Assembly (NCBI GenBank): GCA_019635485.1
Contig: JAHBZL010000014.1
Location: 1-64,000, forward strand
Reading direction: 5' to 3'
Length of the DNA stretch: 64,000 bases
Source of the DNA: Piscinibacter sp.
GTDB lineage: Bacteria > Pseudomonadota > Gammaproteobacteria > Burkholderiales > Burkholderiaceae_C
Shown: positions 4,580-26,443 of the stretch, piece after piece
How the letters are laid out: every line of letters begins with the position of its first letter
Numbering within the stretch: the first letter of the stretch is position 1
Notes under the pieces: model-generated
What the model was told of the DNA's origin: nothing
Databases searched by the model: none
The model's input: only the letters and a program-made list of their open reading frames with translations
Position numbers and translations under genes: made by a program

Positions 4580-5854
4580 TCAGAAGACCGTGCCGTCGCT
4601 GTCGATCGTCACCGGCGGCGCGCCGCCCGGCCGCCGCTCGGCGGCGATCTGCCGGCCGGCGGCCCAGCTGCCGCCCTCCAGCATGCAGGCCAGCGGCAGC
4701 GCCGGCGCGCCCAGCCGTTCGCGCACGCGCGGGGCGAGTTCGTCGAGCAGCGCCACGGTGAGCGCGCGCCACTCGATCACCCAGGGCTCGGCGGGCGTGC
4801 GCGGCCGTGCGGCGAAGGCAGCGTCGCGCGGCACGATCACGCCGGCGTCGAGCAGCAGGCCGCCGTTGCGGTACTCGGGCAGGCCGGTCAGGTCGTCCAG
4901 GCCGTGCACCTTCACGCCGGCCCACTCGAAGGGTTCGAGCAGGGAATAGGCGAGCCACTGGCTGAGCTTGTGGAACGGCACCCAGCCCGCACTCGGCCCC
5001 TCGCCGCCGGCCGCCTCGTGCGGCCACACGTCGCCCACCGGTATCCCGTGGAAGACCTGCCCGCTCGGCCAGATGCCGCTGAACGACTCGAGCAGCGCGC
5101 CGAGGATGCGCCCGGCCCCCACCTCGTGGTGCATCGCCGTCGGCAGCGGCCGGTGGTGGTTCAGGCGTGGCGCGTGCGAATGATGGGTCAGCGCGTCGAA
5201 CAGGTGGCCGGGCTGGCCGGTGGAGGTGAAGACCTCCGGCCGCGCGCGCAGCGCCTCGCCGAGGCGGTGCAGCAGCGCGACGCGGCCCTCCAACCCGACC
5301 AGCGGATTGTCCGGCCCGGCCTGGAACACGTCGGCGAGCGCGCGCGTGTCGAGTTTCAGCAGCGCGACGGCATCGACCCGGATCGGATCCCCGGGGTCGG
5401 ACGAGAAGCGCCCGGCCAGGAAGGCGCGGAAGCTCGCCACCGCGAGGCCTTCGCTACGCGTGAAGGTCTGGCCGCTCTCCGCCTCGCGGTAGCGCCAGTC
5501 CGGGCCGGCGCCGGCGTCCAACAGCACACTGATCAACGCCAGGTCGATGTGCGTGCGCGCAGCGGCGATGTGGCTGCGGCCGTTCAGCCTGCGGTCCAGC
5601 TCGGCCTTGCGGTCCACCCCGCCGGCCTCGAAGTGGCGCCAGCGGCTGTGGTACGGAATCTTCAGGTCCGGGAAGCGGCTGCTCGTCAGCGCCGCGATGC
5701 GCTGCGCGACCTCGTCGAGCCGCGTGCGGTCGAGCGTGAAGTGCGCCGAGCGGCCGGCCTCCACGTACGACGCGATCGCCCGGCAGCGCGCACGGATCGT
5801 CGCCGGGTCGCGCAGCGTGCGGACCGCGGCGTCGATCGCATGCGCCTCATTCAA
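4580..5854 (-). CDS. URC4/DUF1688 uracil-catabolism protein
   Basis: A 424-residue protein of the DUF1688 (URC4/Urg3) family. In fungi this family is required for uracil degradation by the URC pathway, which is distinct from the reductive and Rut routes; its exact reaction is unsettled. Recognised from the N-terminal block (ATIRARCRAI), the FPDLKIPYHSRWRHFE block and the conserved tail (LEGGSWAAGRQIA). It is cytoplasmic, with no signal peptide. Its start overlaps the 3' end of the GTP-cyclohydrolase-like URC1 gene by 8 bp, which is the expected genomic pairing and strongly supports the assignment. The uracil phosphoribosyltransferase step (URC6) is not visible in this window. Confidence 0.9.
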   Translation of the reverse strand: MNEAHAIDAAVRTLRDPATIRARCRAIASYVEAGRSAHFTLDRTRLDEVAQRIAALTSSRFPDLKIPYHSRWRHFEAGGVDRKAELDRRLNGRSHIAAARTHIDLALISVLLDAGAGPDWRYREAESGQTFTRSEGLAVASFRAFLAGRFSSDPGDPIRVDAVALLKLDTRALADVFQAGPDNPLVGLEGRVALLHRLGEALRARPEVFTSTGQPGHLFDALTHHSHAPRLNHHRPLPTAMHHEVGAGRILGALLESFSGIWPSGQVFHGIPVGDVWPHEAAGGEGPSAGWVPFHKLSQWLAYSLLEPFEWAGVKVHGLDDLTGLPEYRNGGLLLDAGVIVPRDAAFAARPRTPAEPWVIEWRALTVALLDELAPRVRERLGAPALPLACMLEGGSWAAGRQIAAERRPGGAPPVTIDSDGTVF

Positions 5855-7100
5855 GCCCGCGCCCCTTGACGGCCGCGAGGCGTGCCTCGTCGGGCACGGC
5901 CCCGTCGGTGAAGTAGCCGGCCGCGATCTTGGCCTCGATCTCGACCTTCGCGTCGGCCGGCACCAGCGCGTCCGGGATCTTGACGCGCTCGCCGACCTCG
6001 ATGCCGCTGCCGGTGATCGCGTCGTACTTGTCGTTGCTCATCGAGACGAGCCGGTGGATCCTGCGGATGCCGAGCCAGTGCAGCACGTCGGGCATCAGCT
6101 CCTGGAAGCGCATGTCCTGCACGCCGGCGACGCATTCGGTCCGCAGGAAGTACTTGTCGGCCCGGTCGCCGCCCTCCTGGCGCTTGCGCGCGTTGTAGAC
6201 GAGGAACTTGGTGACCTCGCCGAGCGCGCGGCCCTCCTTGCGGCTGTAGGCGATCAGGCCGACGCCGCCCTGCTGCGAGCCCTGGATGCACTCCTCGATC
6301 GCATGCGTCAGGTACGGGCGGCAGGTGCAGATGTCGGAGCCGAACACGTCCGAGCCGTTGCACTCGTCGTGCACGCGGGCGGTCAGCGTCACGGCCGGGT
6401 CGGCGAGATCCCGCGGGTTGCCGAAGATGTACAGCGTCTGCCCGCCGATCGGCGGCAGGAAGACCTCGATGTCGCTGCGCGTCACGAGTTCCGGGTACAT
6501 GCCGCCGGTCTCCTCGAACAGCGCGCGGCGCAGTTCGGCCTCGCTGACCTGGAAGCGCTTCGCGACGCCCGGCAACCACCAGACCGGCTCGATCGCGATC
6601 TTGGTGACGGCCGCGGAGCTGTCCTCCAGCAGGACCTTGCCGTCCACCTGCAGGCGCTGGAAGGCGAGCGCCTGGCGGATCTCCGGCAGGTGGATGTGCG
6701 CCTTGGTCACCGCGATGGTCGGGCGGATGTCGTAGCCCTGCTCGAGGTAATCGGCGAACGCCGTCTGCACCGCCGCGCCCCAGGGGTCGATCGAGACGAT
6801 CTTCTCCGGATCGCCCCACTGCTCGTAGGGGCCGATCAGGTCGGTCGGCGCGGTGTTCGTCAGGTCGGCGCGGTGGCCTTTGACCAGGTTGCCGGCCGCG
6901 ACCGCCAGCGCGCGGTAGACGCCGTAGCTGCCGCTGTGCGTGCCGACCACGTTGCGCTGGCTGCGGTTGCTGGTCGTGCCGACGATCGGTCCGCGTTCGA
7001 GCGCGTCGGCCGCCCCCCAGTGGATGGAGGGCGCGCCGGTGGCGCCCTGGCCGGGGTGGGAGGTCAGGCGGATGTGGCGGGCGCCGGGTTCGGAACTCAT
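5847..7100 (-). CDS. URC1-type GTP cyclohydrolase II homologue
   Basis: A 417-residue protein whose C-terminal half is RibA-like GTP cyclohydrolase II. The zinc-cysteine cluster is present (ECNGSDVFGSDICTCRPYL, with C-x(10)-C-x-C spacing), as is the arginine-containing loop (YSRKEGRALG). The N-terminal 150 residues (THSGSYGVYRALAVAAG, TNTAPTDLIGPYEQWGD) are typical of the URC1 subgroup and absent from riboflavin RibA. In the URC pathway this protein acts in uracil ring breakdown rather than riboflavin synthesis. It overlaps URC4 by 8 bp. Databases often label this subgroup simply GTP cyclohydrolase II; the neighbour argues for URC1. Confidence 0.9.
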   Translation of the reverse strand: MSSEPGARHIRLTSHPGQGATGAPSIHWGAADALERGPIVGTTSNRSQRNVVGTHSGSYGVYRALAVAAGNLVKGHRADLTNTAPTDLIGPYEQWGDPEKIVSIDPWGAAVQTAFADYLEQGYDIRPTIAVTKAHIHLPEIRQALAFQRLQVDGKVLLEDSSAAVTKIAIEPVWWLPGVAKRFQVSEAELRRALFEETGGMYPELVTRSDIEVFLPPIGGQTLYIFGNPRDLADPAVTLTARVHDECNGSDVFGSDICTCRPYLTHAIEECIQGSQQGGVGLIAYSRKEGRALGEVTKFLVYNARKRQEGGDRADKYFLRTECVAGVQDMRFQELMPDVLHWLGIRRIHRLVSMSNDKYDAITGSGIEVGERVKIPDALVPADAKVEIEAKIAAGYFTDGAVPDEARLAAVKGRGLE

Positions 7101-7157
7101 CAGGACAGCATAGCGCCGGAACGGTGCGCCGGGCGACCGGTCGTCCTGCCTGGCAGT

Positions 7158-25763: not shown

Positions 25764-25768
25764 ACCCC

Positions 25769-26443
25769 ATGCGCCTGCCCCACCTGCCCGCCCTGAAGGT
25801 CTGCTGCATCTCCAGCGTCGAGGAGGCGCAGCTCGCGATCGCGCACGGCGCCTCGGCGCTCGGGCTGGTGTCGGCCATGCCGAGCGGGCCCGGCGTGATC
25901 GAGGAGGCGCTGATCGCCGAGATCGCGACCCGCGTGCCGCCGACGATCGAGACCTTCCTGCTCACATCGCGCCAGGAAGCCGACGCGATCGTCGAGCAGC
26001 AGCGCCGCTGCCGCACCAGCACGCTGCAGCTGGTCGACCATGTGCCGCACGCCGAGCTGAGGCGCCTGCGCACGGCGCTGCCCGGCATCCGGCTGGTGCA
26101 GGTGATCCACGTCGCCGATGCCGGCTCGGTGGAAGAAGCCGTGGCCGTCGCGCCGCTGGTCGATGCGGTGCTGCTCGACTCCGGCAACCCGACGCTGGCG
26201 GTCAAGGAACTCGGCGGCACCGGGCGCGTGCACGACTGGGCGCTGTCGGCGCGCATCCGTGCCGCGATCGGCGTGCCGCTGTTCCTGGCCGGCGGCCTGC
26301 GGCCGGACAACGTCGCGCAGGCCATCGCGACCGTGCGCCCGTTCGGCCTGGACATCTGCAGCGGCGTGCGCAGCGACGGCCGCCTCGACGGCGACAAGCT
26401 CTCCCGCTTCGTCGCGGCATGGGCTCAGACGAACGTGCCTTGA
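25769..26443 (+). CDS. TrpF-like phosphoribosylanthranilate isomerase homologue
   Basis: A (beta/alpha)8 protein of the TrpF family, 224 residues. The catalytic cysteine (KVCCISS, replacing the usual KICG) and the aspartate (AVLLDSGN) are both present, as are the phosphate-binding segments LAGGLRPDNV and DICSGVRSDG. It starts 5 bp after deoA. In canonical TrpF this enzyme isomerises phosphoribosylanthranilate in tryptophan synthesis; here there are no trp genes, but nucleoside-breakdown genes. It may therefore be a paralogue acting on a sugar-phosphate amine from nucleoside metabolism, or the only trpF of the organism moved here. Cysteine-cysteine in the active-site motif is unusual. Confidence 0.82.
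   Translation: MRLPHLPALKVCCISSVEEAQLAIAHGASALGLVSAMPSGPGVIEEALIAEIATRVPPTIETFLLTSRQEADAIVEQQRRCRTSTLQLVDHVPHAELRRLRTALPGIRLVQVIHVADAGSVEEAVAVAPLVDAVLLDSGNPTLAVKELGGTGRVHDWALSARIRAAIGVPLFLAGGLRPDNVAQAIATVRPFGLDICSGVRSDGRLDGDKLSRFVAAWAQTNVP

What the first reader, a model, noticed from the sequence alone, without database searches (positions are those of the whole stretch)
4580..26443. Nucleoside uptake-to-uracil-degradation district
About 22 kb contain, in close proximity, URC1 and URC4 genes, a dioxygenase, a TonB receptor, two nucleoside-binding proteins, an ABC importer, adenosine and cytidine deaminases, purine and thymidine phosphorylases, deoC and a TrpF-like enzyme. Cytidine to uridine to uracil to URC is a continuous route, with outer and inner membrane transport linked. 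The classical Rut and reductive pathways are absent here. The combination of URC genes with a TonB receptor is not something I know as a described system.
Basis: partly seen in the sequence, partly recalled or inferred. Interest (0 to 1): 0.72.

Follow-up and report, generated by a model that had tools for sequence, protein, structure and literature searches.

The report
Nucleoside scavenging locus with ribose demethylase
A bacterium related to Piscinibacter carries one gene cluster that probably imports RNA building blocks, strips methyl groups from their sugars with a relative of a human enzyme, and degrades them as food, which would give bacterial versions of that enzyme a job.

Summary
URC1–URC4 is a real, widespread pair, usually with UPRT nearby; here UPRT lies elsewhere, and no RutA or PreA exceeds cut-off.

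The unnamed "dioxygenase" is PHYHD1-type (closest solved structure human PHYHD1, E 1.6e-55, TM 0.90). PHYHD1 and bacterial relatives were reported in December 2025 to demethylate free 2'-O-methyl nucleosides. The four ribose-contact residues and the metal ligands are kept here.

PHYHD1-like genes lie within 9 kb of nucleoside/nucleobase genes in 9 of 24 cases in the family draw and 15 of 29 in another class, against 0 of 31 hand-picked control regions. Most examined copies are unlinked. I found no account of this linkage in the literature searched.

The TonB receptor's closer homologues lie beside nucleoside genes (10 of 14); 16 of 26 homologues have a sigma54-type promoter element (0.7 expected).

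Best reading: a scavenging locus for RNA-derived nucleosides, including ribose-methylated ones, ending in URC. Enzyme activity, receptor substrate and the uridine-to-uracil step are inferred, not shown.

The parts
4580..5854 (-). URC4 (DUF1688), uracil catabolism protein of unknown chemistry
   Evidence: Pfam PF07958 E 1.9e-145; URC1 within 4 kb in 50 of 54 named URC4 loci
5847..7100 (-). URC1 (GTP cyclohydrolase II-like); overlaps URC4 by 8 nt
   Evidence: NF005536 778.7 bits over cut-off; keeps three cysteines in CNGSDVFGSDICTC (that these match the zinc site is recalled)
7158..7994 (-). PHYHD1-type Fe(II)/2-oxoglutarate dioxygenase, predicted 2'-O-methyl nucleoside demethylase; 57 nt upstream of URC1 on the same strand
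   Evidence: PhyH PF05721; PHYHD1 2opw E 1.6e-55; AF2 model pLDDT 93.9, Foldseek 3obz TM 0.90; K95, H98, Q132, W266, H149, D151, H236
8049..8064 (+). sigma54-type -24/-12 promoter element TGGCATGCCGCTTGCA upstream of the TonB receptor
   Evidence: 16 of 26 distinct TonB homologues have one within 300 nt, 0.7 expected
8110..10413 (+). TonB-dependent outer membrane receptor, predicted nucleoside receptor; divergent from the dioxygenase
   Evidence: Plug and barrel domains; homologues beside BMP1, ADA/BMP2 or NUP plus PNP_UDP_1
10497..11447 (+). BMP1, periplasmic nucleoside-type binding protein behind the TonB gene
   Evidence: PF02608 E 6.1e-56; PDB 7x0r Lbp and 2fqw TmpC
12272..13315 (-). adenosine deaminase family protein
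   Evidence: PF00962 E 1.7e-73; TIGR01430 207.3 bits, just under its cut-off 216.55
13406..14377 (+). BMP2, second periplasmic nucleoside-type binding protein (ATG at 13406)
   Evidence: PF02608 E 7.7e-61 for 13412-14377
14488..15996 (+). ABC importer ATPase of the BMP-type importer
   Evidence: ABC_tran, two stretches (in the longer ORF); NF047930 390 bits, under cut-off
16067..17164 (+). ABC importer permease 1
   Evidence: PF02653
17191..18159 (+). ABC importer permease 2
   Evidence: PF02653
18159..18575 (+). cytidine deaminase
   Evidence: TIGR01354 137.3 bits over cut-off 113.65
18560..19390 (+). purine nucleoside phosphorylase (start codon uncertain)
   Evidence: NF006054 300.4 bits over cut-off 218
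19416..20189 (+). deoxyribose-phosphate aldolase DeoC
   Evidence: TIGR00126 151.4 bits over cut-off 117.3
24432..25763 (+). thymidine phosphorylase DeoA, separated from deoC by unrelated genes
   Evidence: TIGR02643 576.3 bits over cut-off 570.7
25769..26443 (+). TrpF-like (phosphoribosylanthranilate isomerase family); role in this locus doubtful
   Evidence: PF00697; below all NCBIfam cut-offs listed

Best explanation
The district is a nucleoside scavenging and degradation locus whose dioxygenase removes 2'-O-methyl groups from RNA-derived nucleosides, so that they can enter ordinary nucleoside catabolism and, for pyrimidines, the URC pathway. A TonB receptor with a sigma54-type promoter (inferred: switched on when nitrogen is short) takes nucleosides across the outer membrane; BMP1/BMP2 and the ABC importer carry them inward. 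The PHYHD1-type enzyme demethylates ribose-methylated nucleosides with O2 and 2-oxoglutarate, releasing formaldehyde. Adenosine and cytidine deaminases, PNP, DeoA and DeoC process the nucleosides. Uracil, via a UPRT encoded elsewhere, goes to URC1/URC4. Shown here by sequence: gene identities, active-site residues, recurrent linkage, promoter element. Shown by others for relatives: demethylation of free 2'-O-methyl nucleosides. Inferred: activity of this enzyme, receptor and importer substrates, URC flux, nitrogen control.
For: (1) Window PhyH matches human PHYHD1 (E 1.6e-55; next best hit EvdO2 9.5e-17); its model (pLDDT 93.9) matches PHYHD1 at TM 0.90 and human PHYH at 0.65. (2) PMC12709175 (outline, passages and sections 29, 30, 34 read): PHYHD1 and relatives from animals, fungi, plants, bacteria and a virus demethylate 2'-O-methyl nucleosides; human PHYH does not. 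[quoted passage not shown] In 62 distinct PHYHD1-like sequences (63 rows, L043 and L112 being the same) K, Q and W are kept in all and H105 in 60; of the six best-scoring distant PhyH paralogues none keeps the full set. (3) Linkage to nucleoside/nucleobase genes within 9 kb: 9 of 24 (family draw, every orthologue at E < 1e-60, own genome included), 3 of 8 (phylum draw), 15 of 29 (class of G595; two of these are also in the phylum draw), so 25 of 59 distinct; controls 0 of 18 and 0 of 13. In L212, L223, L224, L225, L226, L238, L240 the gene follows BMP-ABC-perm-perm-CDA-PNP-(DeoC)-DeoA-DeoB on one strand, in three of them with ADA next (DeoB is read from Pfam Metalloenzyme). On a quick 62-row tree the linkage needs 7 changes, at least 4 forced by starred branches. 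(4) PhyH is co-directional with and close upstream of URC1-URC4 in the window, L019, L020 and L043/L112. (5) TonB: 10 of 14 homologues at 57% identity or more lie beside nucleoside genes (the 57% line was drawn after seeing the result); sigma54-type element in 16 of 26 against 0.7 expected.
Against: Most PHYHD1-like genes examined are not linked: 15 of 24 in the family, 5 of 8 in the phylum draw, 14 of 29 in the other class. One on an Azospirillum plasmid sits among methyltransferases and a TauD dioxygenase. The Fisher tests (0.005, 0.001) and the PhyH-TonB p value are not corrected for kinship, and the controls were hand-picked. PhyH and URC1 do not co-occur more than expected, and in G460, G502 and G399 they are on different contigs. 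S154, which docking ties to purines, is not conserved (G here). PMC12709175 says F161 is tyrosine in its bacterial demethylases, but this enzyme has F, so it is nearer the eukaryotic type than to the bacterial enzymes assayed. TonB homologues at 56% identity or less: 0 of 9 near the nucleoside genes searched for. Sigma54-like elements also exceed simple shuffles upstream of URC1 (11 of 80 rows, 1.1 expected) and UPRT (10 of 79, 1.1), so the element is not unique to TonB (duplicate rows included). No NtrC-like site in 300 nt upstream of TonB. No activity data exist here for this enzyme.
Confidence: 0.68

Rival explanations
1. The dioxygenase belongs to nucleoside catabolism but acts on another bond: for example it oxidises the 5-methyl group of thymine/thymidine, or hydroxylates C2' of deoxynucleosides, so that thymidine feeds the ribo/uracil route and URC.
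For: It sits beside URC and, in another class, directly after DeoA/DeoB. The locus has thymidine phosphorylase and DeoC. Fungal thymine 7-hydroxylase and pyrimidine deoxynucleoside 2'-hydroxylase do such chemistry (recalled).
Against: Closest characterised relative found is PHYHD1, with ribose 2'-O-methyl as substrate, and its ribose contacts are all kept. DeoA and DeoC already dispose of deoxyribose. An iso-orotate decarboxylase was not searched for.
Confidence: 0.17
2. An ordinary nucleoside utilisation region beside URC; the dioxygenase and TonB receptor are unrelated neighbours held together in a few Piscinibacter by descent.
For: TonB with URC occurs in few genomes; unrelated genes are interspersed; most PHYHD1-like genes are unlinked.
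Against: PhyH is linked to nucleoside genes in two classes with different arrangements and at least 4 changes on the tree, against 0 of 31 control regions. TonB homologues stand beside other nucleoside genes (NUP, PNP_UDP_1) in other genera.
Confidence: 0.1
3. The TonB receptor imports a siderophore or another large ligand and is not part of nucleoside uptake (this can hold together with the best explanation of the dioxygenase).
For: Top curated and PDB matches are siderophore or related receptors, all far below cut-off; 9 of 9 homologues at 56% identity or less have no hit to the nucleoside queries within about 8-9 kb.
Against: Ten of 14 closer homologues lie beside nucleoside genes. The gene is followed by a nucleoside-type binding protein in the window, L019, L020, L116, L123 and L161. 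A sigma54-type element was found; a Fur box was not searched for.
Confidence: 0.2

Closest known systems
PHYHD1 / FJS 2'-O-methyl nucleoside demethylases (PMC12709175, Nucleic Acids Res. 2025)
   Same: PF05721 fold, HxD...H ligands, four ribose-contact residues, 40% identity to human PHYHD1 in the Foldseek alignment; acts on free nucleosides, which fits an import locus
   Different: The passages and sections read discuss no genomic context of these enzymes; the window enzyme has F where the paper reports Y for its bacterial enzymes; activity untested here
URC uracil catabolism pathway of Lachancea kluyveri (URC1, URC4, URC6; recalled, PMC7530994 seen in the search listing only)
   Same: URC1 and URC4 adjacent; UPRT (URC6 function, recalled) usually near by in the bacterial loci read, elsewhere in this genome
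   Different: Bacterial; linked to ABC importers, cytosine-deaminase-like genes and, in a few genomes, PHYHD1 and a TonB receptor
BMP-type nucleoside ABC importer operons (binding proteins TmpC/PnrA, Lbp)
   Same: BMP binding protein, ATPase, two permeases, CDA, PNP, Deo genes in order
   Different: Carries a PHYHD1-type gene; in the window also URC1/URC4 and an outer membrane receptor
RK9NH/RK9DPA nucleoside hydrolase and aldolase pair for 2'-O-methyluridine (PMC6278475, passages read)
   Same: A proposed gene cluster for degradation of 2'-O-methyl nucleosides
   Different: Cleaves the glycosidic bond instead of demethylating; described as similar to an actinobacterial genome
E. coli Rut pathway (recalled)
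   Same: Pyrimidine degradation as a nitrogen source
   Different: No RutA over cut-off here

Membership tests
PHYHD1-type 2'-O-methyl nucleoside demethylase | PF05721 fold with HxD...H iron ligands | tested here: met
PHYHD1-type 2'-O-methyl nucleoside demethylase | closer to PHYHD1 than to PHYH, EctD or other solved PF05721 enzymes | tested here: met
   E 1.6e-55 against 9.5e-17 for the next hit; TM 0.90 against 0.65 for PHYH
PHYHD1-type 2'-O-methyl nucleoside demethylase | ribose contacts K102, H105, Q139, W277 | tested here: met
   K95, H98, Q132, W266 in the window protein
PHYHD1-type 2'-O-methyl nucleoside demethylase | extra helix near the cavity opening (PHYHD1 residues 56-71) | tested here: inconclusive
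   model has short helices 55-58 and 61-68 in the matching stretch, but pLDDT averages 65 over residues 51-60
PHYHD1-type 2'-O-methyl nucleoside demethylase | 2-oxoglutarate-dependent demethylation of free 2'-O-methyl nucleosides | not testable with these tools
   needs an assay
URC pathway | adjacent URC1 and URC4 | tested here: met
URC pathway | UPRT available | tested here: met
   two UPRTase-family hits over cut-off elsewhere in the genome, one beside a CodA-like gene
URC pathway | growth on uracil that depends on URC1/URC4 | not testable with these tools
   needs genetics
Rut or reductive pyrimidine pathway | RutA, or PreA-type dihydropyrimidine dehydrogenase, over cut-off | tested here: not met
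   assembly 84% complete; no other genes of these pathways were searched for
TonB-dependent nucleoside receptor | plug and barrel domains | tested here: met
TonB-dependent nucleoside receptor | nucleoside transport | not testable with these tools
   context only
sigma54/NtrC nitrogen regulon | -24/-12 element upstream | tested here: met
   TonB gene: 16 of 26 homologues; none upstream of PhyH (0 of 92 rows, duplicates included)
sigma54/NtrC nitrogen regulon | NtrC-like binding site upstream | tested here: not met
   none at 10 of 12 positions or better within 300 nt in 26 homologues (consensus recalled)

The most novel reading that the evidence does not exclude
Proteobacteria possess a dedicated, nitrogen-controlled nutrient route for ribose-methylated RNA nucleosides: a sigma54-driven TonB receptor and a BMP/ABC importer bring in nucleosides from dead cells, a PHYHD1-type demethylase in the same operon or locus turns 2'-O-methyl nucleosides into usable ones, and nucleoside catabolism plus URC extract carbon and nitrogen. 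The physiological role of bacterial PHYHD1 would then be food use, not RNA editing.
Probability: 0.42. Interest if true: 0.75.

Novelty: new variant of a known kind. Interest (0 to 1): 0.6.

Why it matters
[quoted passage not shown] Recurrent placement of PHYHD1-type genes in or beside nucleoside operons of two proteobacterial classes gives independent, genomic support for that activity, predicts substrates, and offers bacteria in which to test it. One linked locus (L043) is that of Piscinibacter sakaiensis 201-F6. It also links the poorly understood URC genes and a receptor clade of unknown ligand to nucleoside nutrition.

Tried and rejected
General TonB-URC association: rejected as a general rule (2 of 54 and 1 of 16 URC4 loci). 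PhyH-URC1 co-occurrence across genomes: no enrichment. Conserved neighbourhood of unlinked PhyH orthologues: its genes (nucleotidyltransferase, PP-loop, polyketide-cyclase-like and others) gave no functional lead. Distant TonB homologues: neighbours include a phosphoribosyltransferase-domain protein, an Exo_endo_phos protein and GatB, judged uninformative. NtrC-like sites: none. Named examples through plasmids: one hit, not nucleoside-linked. Second importer in the window (32985-36718): same type as importers beside URC elsewhere (BMP3/ABC2/perm3), not pursued. In the alignment of the PhyH/TonB intergenic region the only shared element I noted by eye was the sigma54-type one. Shared operators of the ADA/BMP2 promoter were not searched for.

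Limits: the URC4 collection scan uses peptide patterns from the window protein and so favours close relatives. Control regions were chosen by hand on the same contigs, not drawn at random. Genome draws are samples. TonB neighbourhoods were read for 23 of 40 non-self places. Of the distant PhyH places only six were looked at. Promoter scan counts include duplicate loci and used simple shuffles; one search uses distinct loci and dinucleotide shuffles. The hypergeometric p for PhyH with TonB (17 of 24 against 37 of 200, 1.4e-9) is not corrected for kinship. Literature searches cover an open-licence library only; supplements were not read.

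
Full report
Observation. The window is about 73% G+C and its closest relatives in the named collection are Piscinibacter (88% and 85% identity for URC4). The genes form several transcription units by direction. PhyH-URC1-URC4 run on the minus strand, with a 57 nt gap and then an 8 nt overlap. TonB-BMP1 run on the plus strand, with 115 nt between the divergent PhyH and TonB starts. Adenosine deaminase (minus) is divergent from BMP2-ABC-permease-permease-CDA-PNP-DeoC (plus). 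DeoA and a TrpF-like gene lie 4 kb further on behind unrelated genes.

URC. URC1 and URC4 are a firm pair. Of 54 named URC4 loci, 50 have URC1 within 4 kb and 45 UPRT within 4 kb; 18 have a CodA-like gene, 12 a BMP protein and 8 a CDA/PNP/Deo/ADA gene within 9 kb; 3 have PhyH and 2 TonB. In the order draw 17 of 399 genomes had DUF1688 at E <= 0.001, 16 of them over the cut-off. For these 16 (two read in 4.2 kb only) the same counts are 16, 14, 8, 4, 3, 1 and 1, the last two being the window. In the window UPRT is not adjacent; the genome has two UPRT-family genes elsewhere, one beside a CodA-like gene. RutA and PreA do not reach cut-off, so of the routes searched for, URC is the only one detected, in an assembly 84% complete. 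URC1 keeps three cysteines that match my recollection of the GTP cyclohydrolase II zinc site.

The gap in the route. PNP scores as purine-type; DeoA passes the thymidine phosphorylase cut-off narrowly and also the broader pyrimidine-nucleoside phosphorylase one, so it might act on uridine. No uridine kinase over cut-off was found, and one nucleoside-hydrolase family gene lies on another contig. This step is open.

The dioxygenase. Pfam gives PhyH. The best solved relative is human PHYHD1 (2opw/3obz, E 1.6e-55; the next, EvdO2, 9.5e-17). An AlphaFold2 model from 41 sequences has mean pLDDT 93.9 and matches PHYHD1 with TM 0.90 and 40% identity, human PHYH with TM 0.65. PMC12709175, of which I read the outline, passages and sections 29, 30 and 34, reports that PHYHD1 and relatives from animals, fungi, plants, bacteria and a virus demethylate free 2'-O-methyl nucleosides, while human PHYH does not. 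It names K102, H105, Q139 and W277 as ribose contacts from docking, conserved among its tested non-bacterial enzymes. The window protein has all four (K95, H98, Q132, W266), and F at the F161 position where the paper reports Y for bacterial enzymes, so it is of the eukaryote-like type. Over 62 distinct PHYHD1-like sequences K, Q and W are kept in 62 and H105 in 60 (A in L242, R in L217); of the six best-scoring distant PhyH paralogues of the family draw none keeps the full set. The base-contact position S154 varies: in the nine linked family members it is G (three), K (two), R, V, H and N; in all 15 unlinked ones it is R, but those form one clade.

Linkage of the dioxygenase. In 200 genomes of the window's family 66 have some match; 24, own genome included, have an orthologue at E < 1e-60. 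I read the surroundings of all 24 (some cut by contig ends): 9 have nucleoside or nucleobase genes (at least 40% identity, at least half the query) within 9 kb. In two of the nine, L103 and L107, the only such gene is CodA-like. In 398 genomes of the phylum, 8 others match at E <= 1e-40 and 3 of these are linked. In 289 genomes of the class of G595, 29 match at E <= 1e-50 and 15 are linked; G595 and G722 are in both draws, so 25 of 59 distinct genes are linked. Control regions picked by hand on the same contigs: 0 of 18 and 0 of 13 (Fisher 0.005 and 0.001, kinship not corrected). In seven loci the gene follows BMP, ABC, two permeases, CDA, PNP, (DeoC), DeoA and a Metalloenzyme-family gene read as DeoB, in three of them with ADA next. 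In L210, L232 and L247 it follows DeoA. In L241, L243, L244 and L249 it lies directly upstream of BMP on the same strand, in L239 divergent from it. On a quick tree of 62 sequences the linked state needs 7 changes, at least 4 forced by starred branches, so the association arose or was lost more than once. Counter-evidence: most orthologues are unlinked, and the one plasmid-borne homologue found lies in a methyltransferase/TauD cluster.

The receptor. The TonB gene is divergent from PhyH in the window, L019, L020, L116, L121 and L123. Of 200 genomes 37 have a homologue at E <= 1e-60, and 17 of the 24 genomes with PhyH do (kinship not corrected). I read 23 of 40 non-self places. Of 14 at 57% identity or more (a line drawn after seeing the result), 10 lie beside nucleoside genes: BMP1 (L116, L123, L161), ADA/BMP2 (L121), or NUP (PF06516) plus PNP_UDP_1 (L162, L163, L166, L167, L169, L171); four do not (L164, L165, L168, L170). 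Of nine at 56% or less, none do. A sigma54-type element (TGGCATGCCGCTTGCA, 8049-8064) precedes the gene; 16 of 26 distinct homologues have one within 300 nt, 0.7 expected from dinucleotide shuffles, whereas 0 of 92 PhyH upstream rows do. Such elements are also seen upstream of URC1 in 11 of 80 and UPRT in 10 of 79 rows, against 1.1 each from simple shuffles (duplicates included). Sigma54 promoters often serve nitrogen metabolism (recalled), which would fit nucleosides as a nitrogen source. No NtrC-like site was found.

Verdict on the interpretation. Nucleoside uptake to uracil degradation is a fair name but rests on genes, not on shown flux. The URC-TonB combination was seen in few genomes. 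The more general and newer pattern is PHYHD1-type dioxygenase plus nucleoside genes. I found no account of it: one search for phytanoyl-CoA dioxygenase with nucleoside, cytidine deaminase and operon returned no paper, and the main text of the 2025 paper has no occurrence of 'neighbo' or 'TonB', while its one 'operon' is the pyr operon. An earlier metagenomic find, a 2'-O-methyluridine hydrolase beside an aldolase gene (PMC6278475, passages), proposed a cluster for the same substrates with other chemistry.

Classification. A new variant of a known kind: known enzyme class, known importer type and known URC genes in a combination not described in the sources searched. The step from gene linkage to a nutritional role is inference and can be tested directly.

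Noticed in passing
window 32985-36718 (-): A second BMP-type ABC importer (BMP3, ABC2, perm3), the same type as the importers that stand directly beside URC1-URC4 in Azohydromonas, Ideonella and others.
   Followed up: partly
window 4542-4557 (-): A second sigma54-type element (CGGCACGGCGCTTGCA, one mismatch) just upstream of a PAS/HisKA_3 sensor kinase (3400-4536) and a LuxR-type response regulator (2747-3907). Two such matches in the window are not rare (10 of 100 shuffles). The kinase also lies near URC4 in L022, L032 and L126.
   Followed up: no
window 11781-12263 (+) and 11420-11668 (-): Rrf2-family regulator (NsrR/RirA-like, below equivalog cut-offs) and an 82-aa ORF without Pfam match, both conserved in L019 and L020 inside the nucleoside district.
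   Followed up: no
L124, L125: PHYHD1-like proteins of two genomes of the window's own family group with those of another class on the tree, which suggests horizontal transfer, perhaps together with BMP/ADA genes.
   Followed up: partly
PHYHD1-like proteins, position of human S154: The position that docking ties to the base is R in all 15 unlinked family members and G, K, R, V, H or N in the nine linked ones; it may tune base preference, or only reflect descent.
   Followed up: partly
L162, L163, L166, L167, L169, L171: A separate gene set PNP_UDP_1, NUP and TonB receptor, each with a sigma54-type element upstream of the TonB or the phosphorylase gene.
   Followed up: partly
L217 (Azospirillum ramasamyi plasmid NZ_CP029836): PHYHD1-like gene (47%) in a cluster of SAM methyltransferases, a TauD dioxygenase and a very long hypothetical protein; R at the H105 position, so perhaps another substrate.
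   Followed up: no
window 46253-51109: ArsA-type anion-transporting ATPase followed by ORFs that read like arsenate reductase, transporter and ArsR genes (by eye), an arsenic cassette.
   Followed up: no
window 53999-56757 (-): Molybdopterin-binding and 2Fe-2S subunits of a xanthine-dehydrogenase-like oxidoreductase (Pfam domains; the family name is my reading).
   Followed up: no
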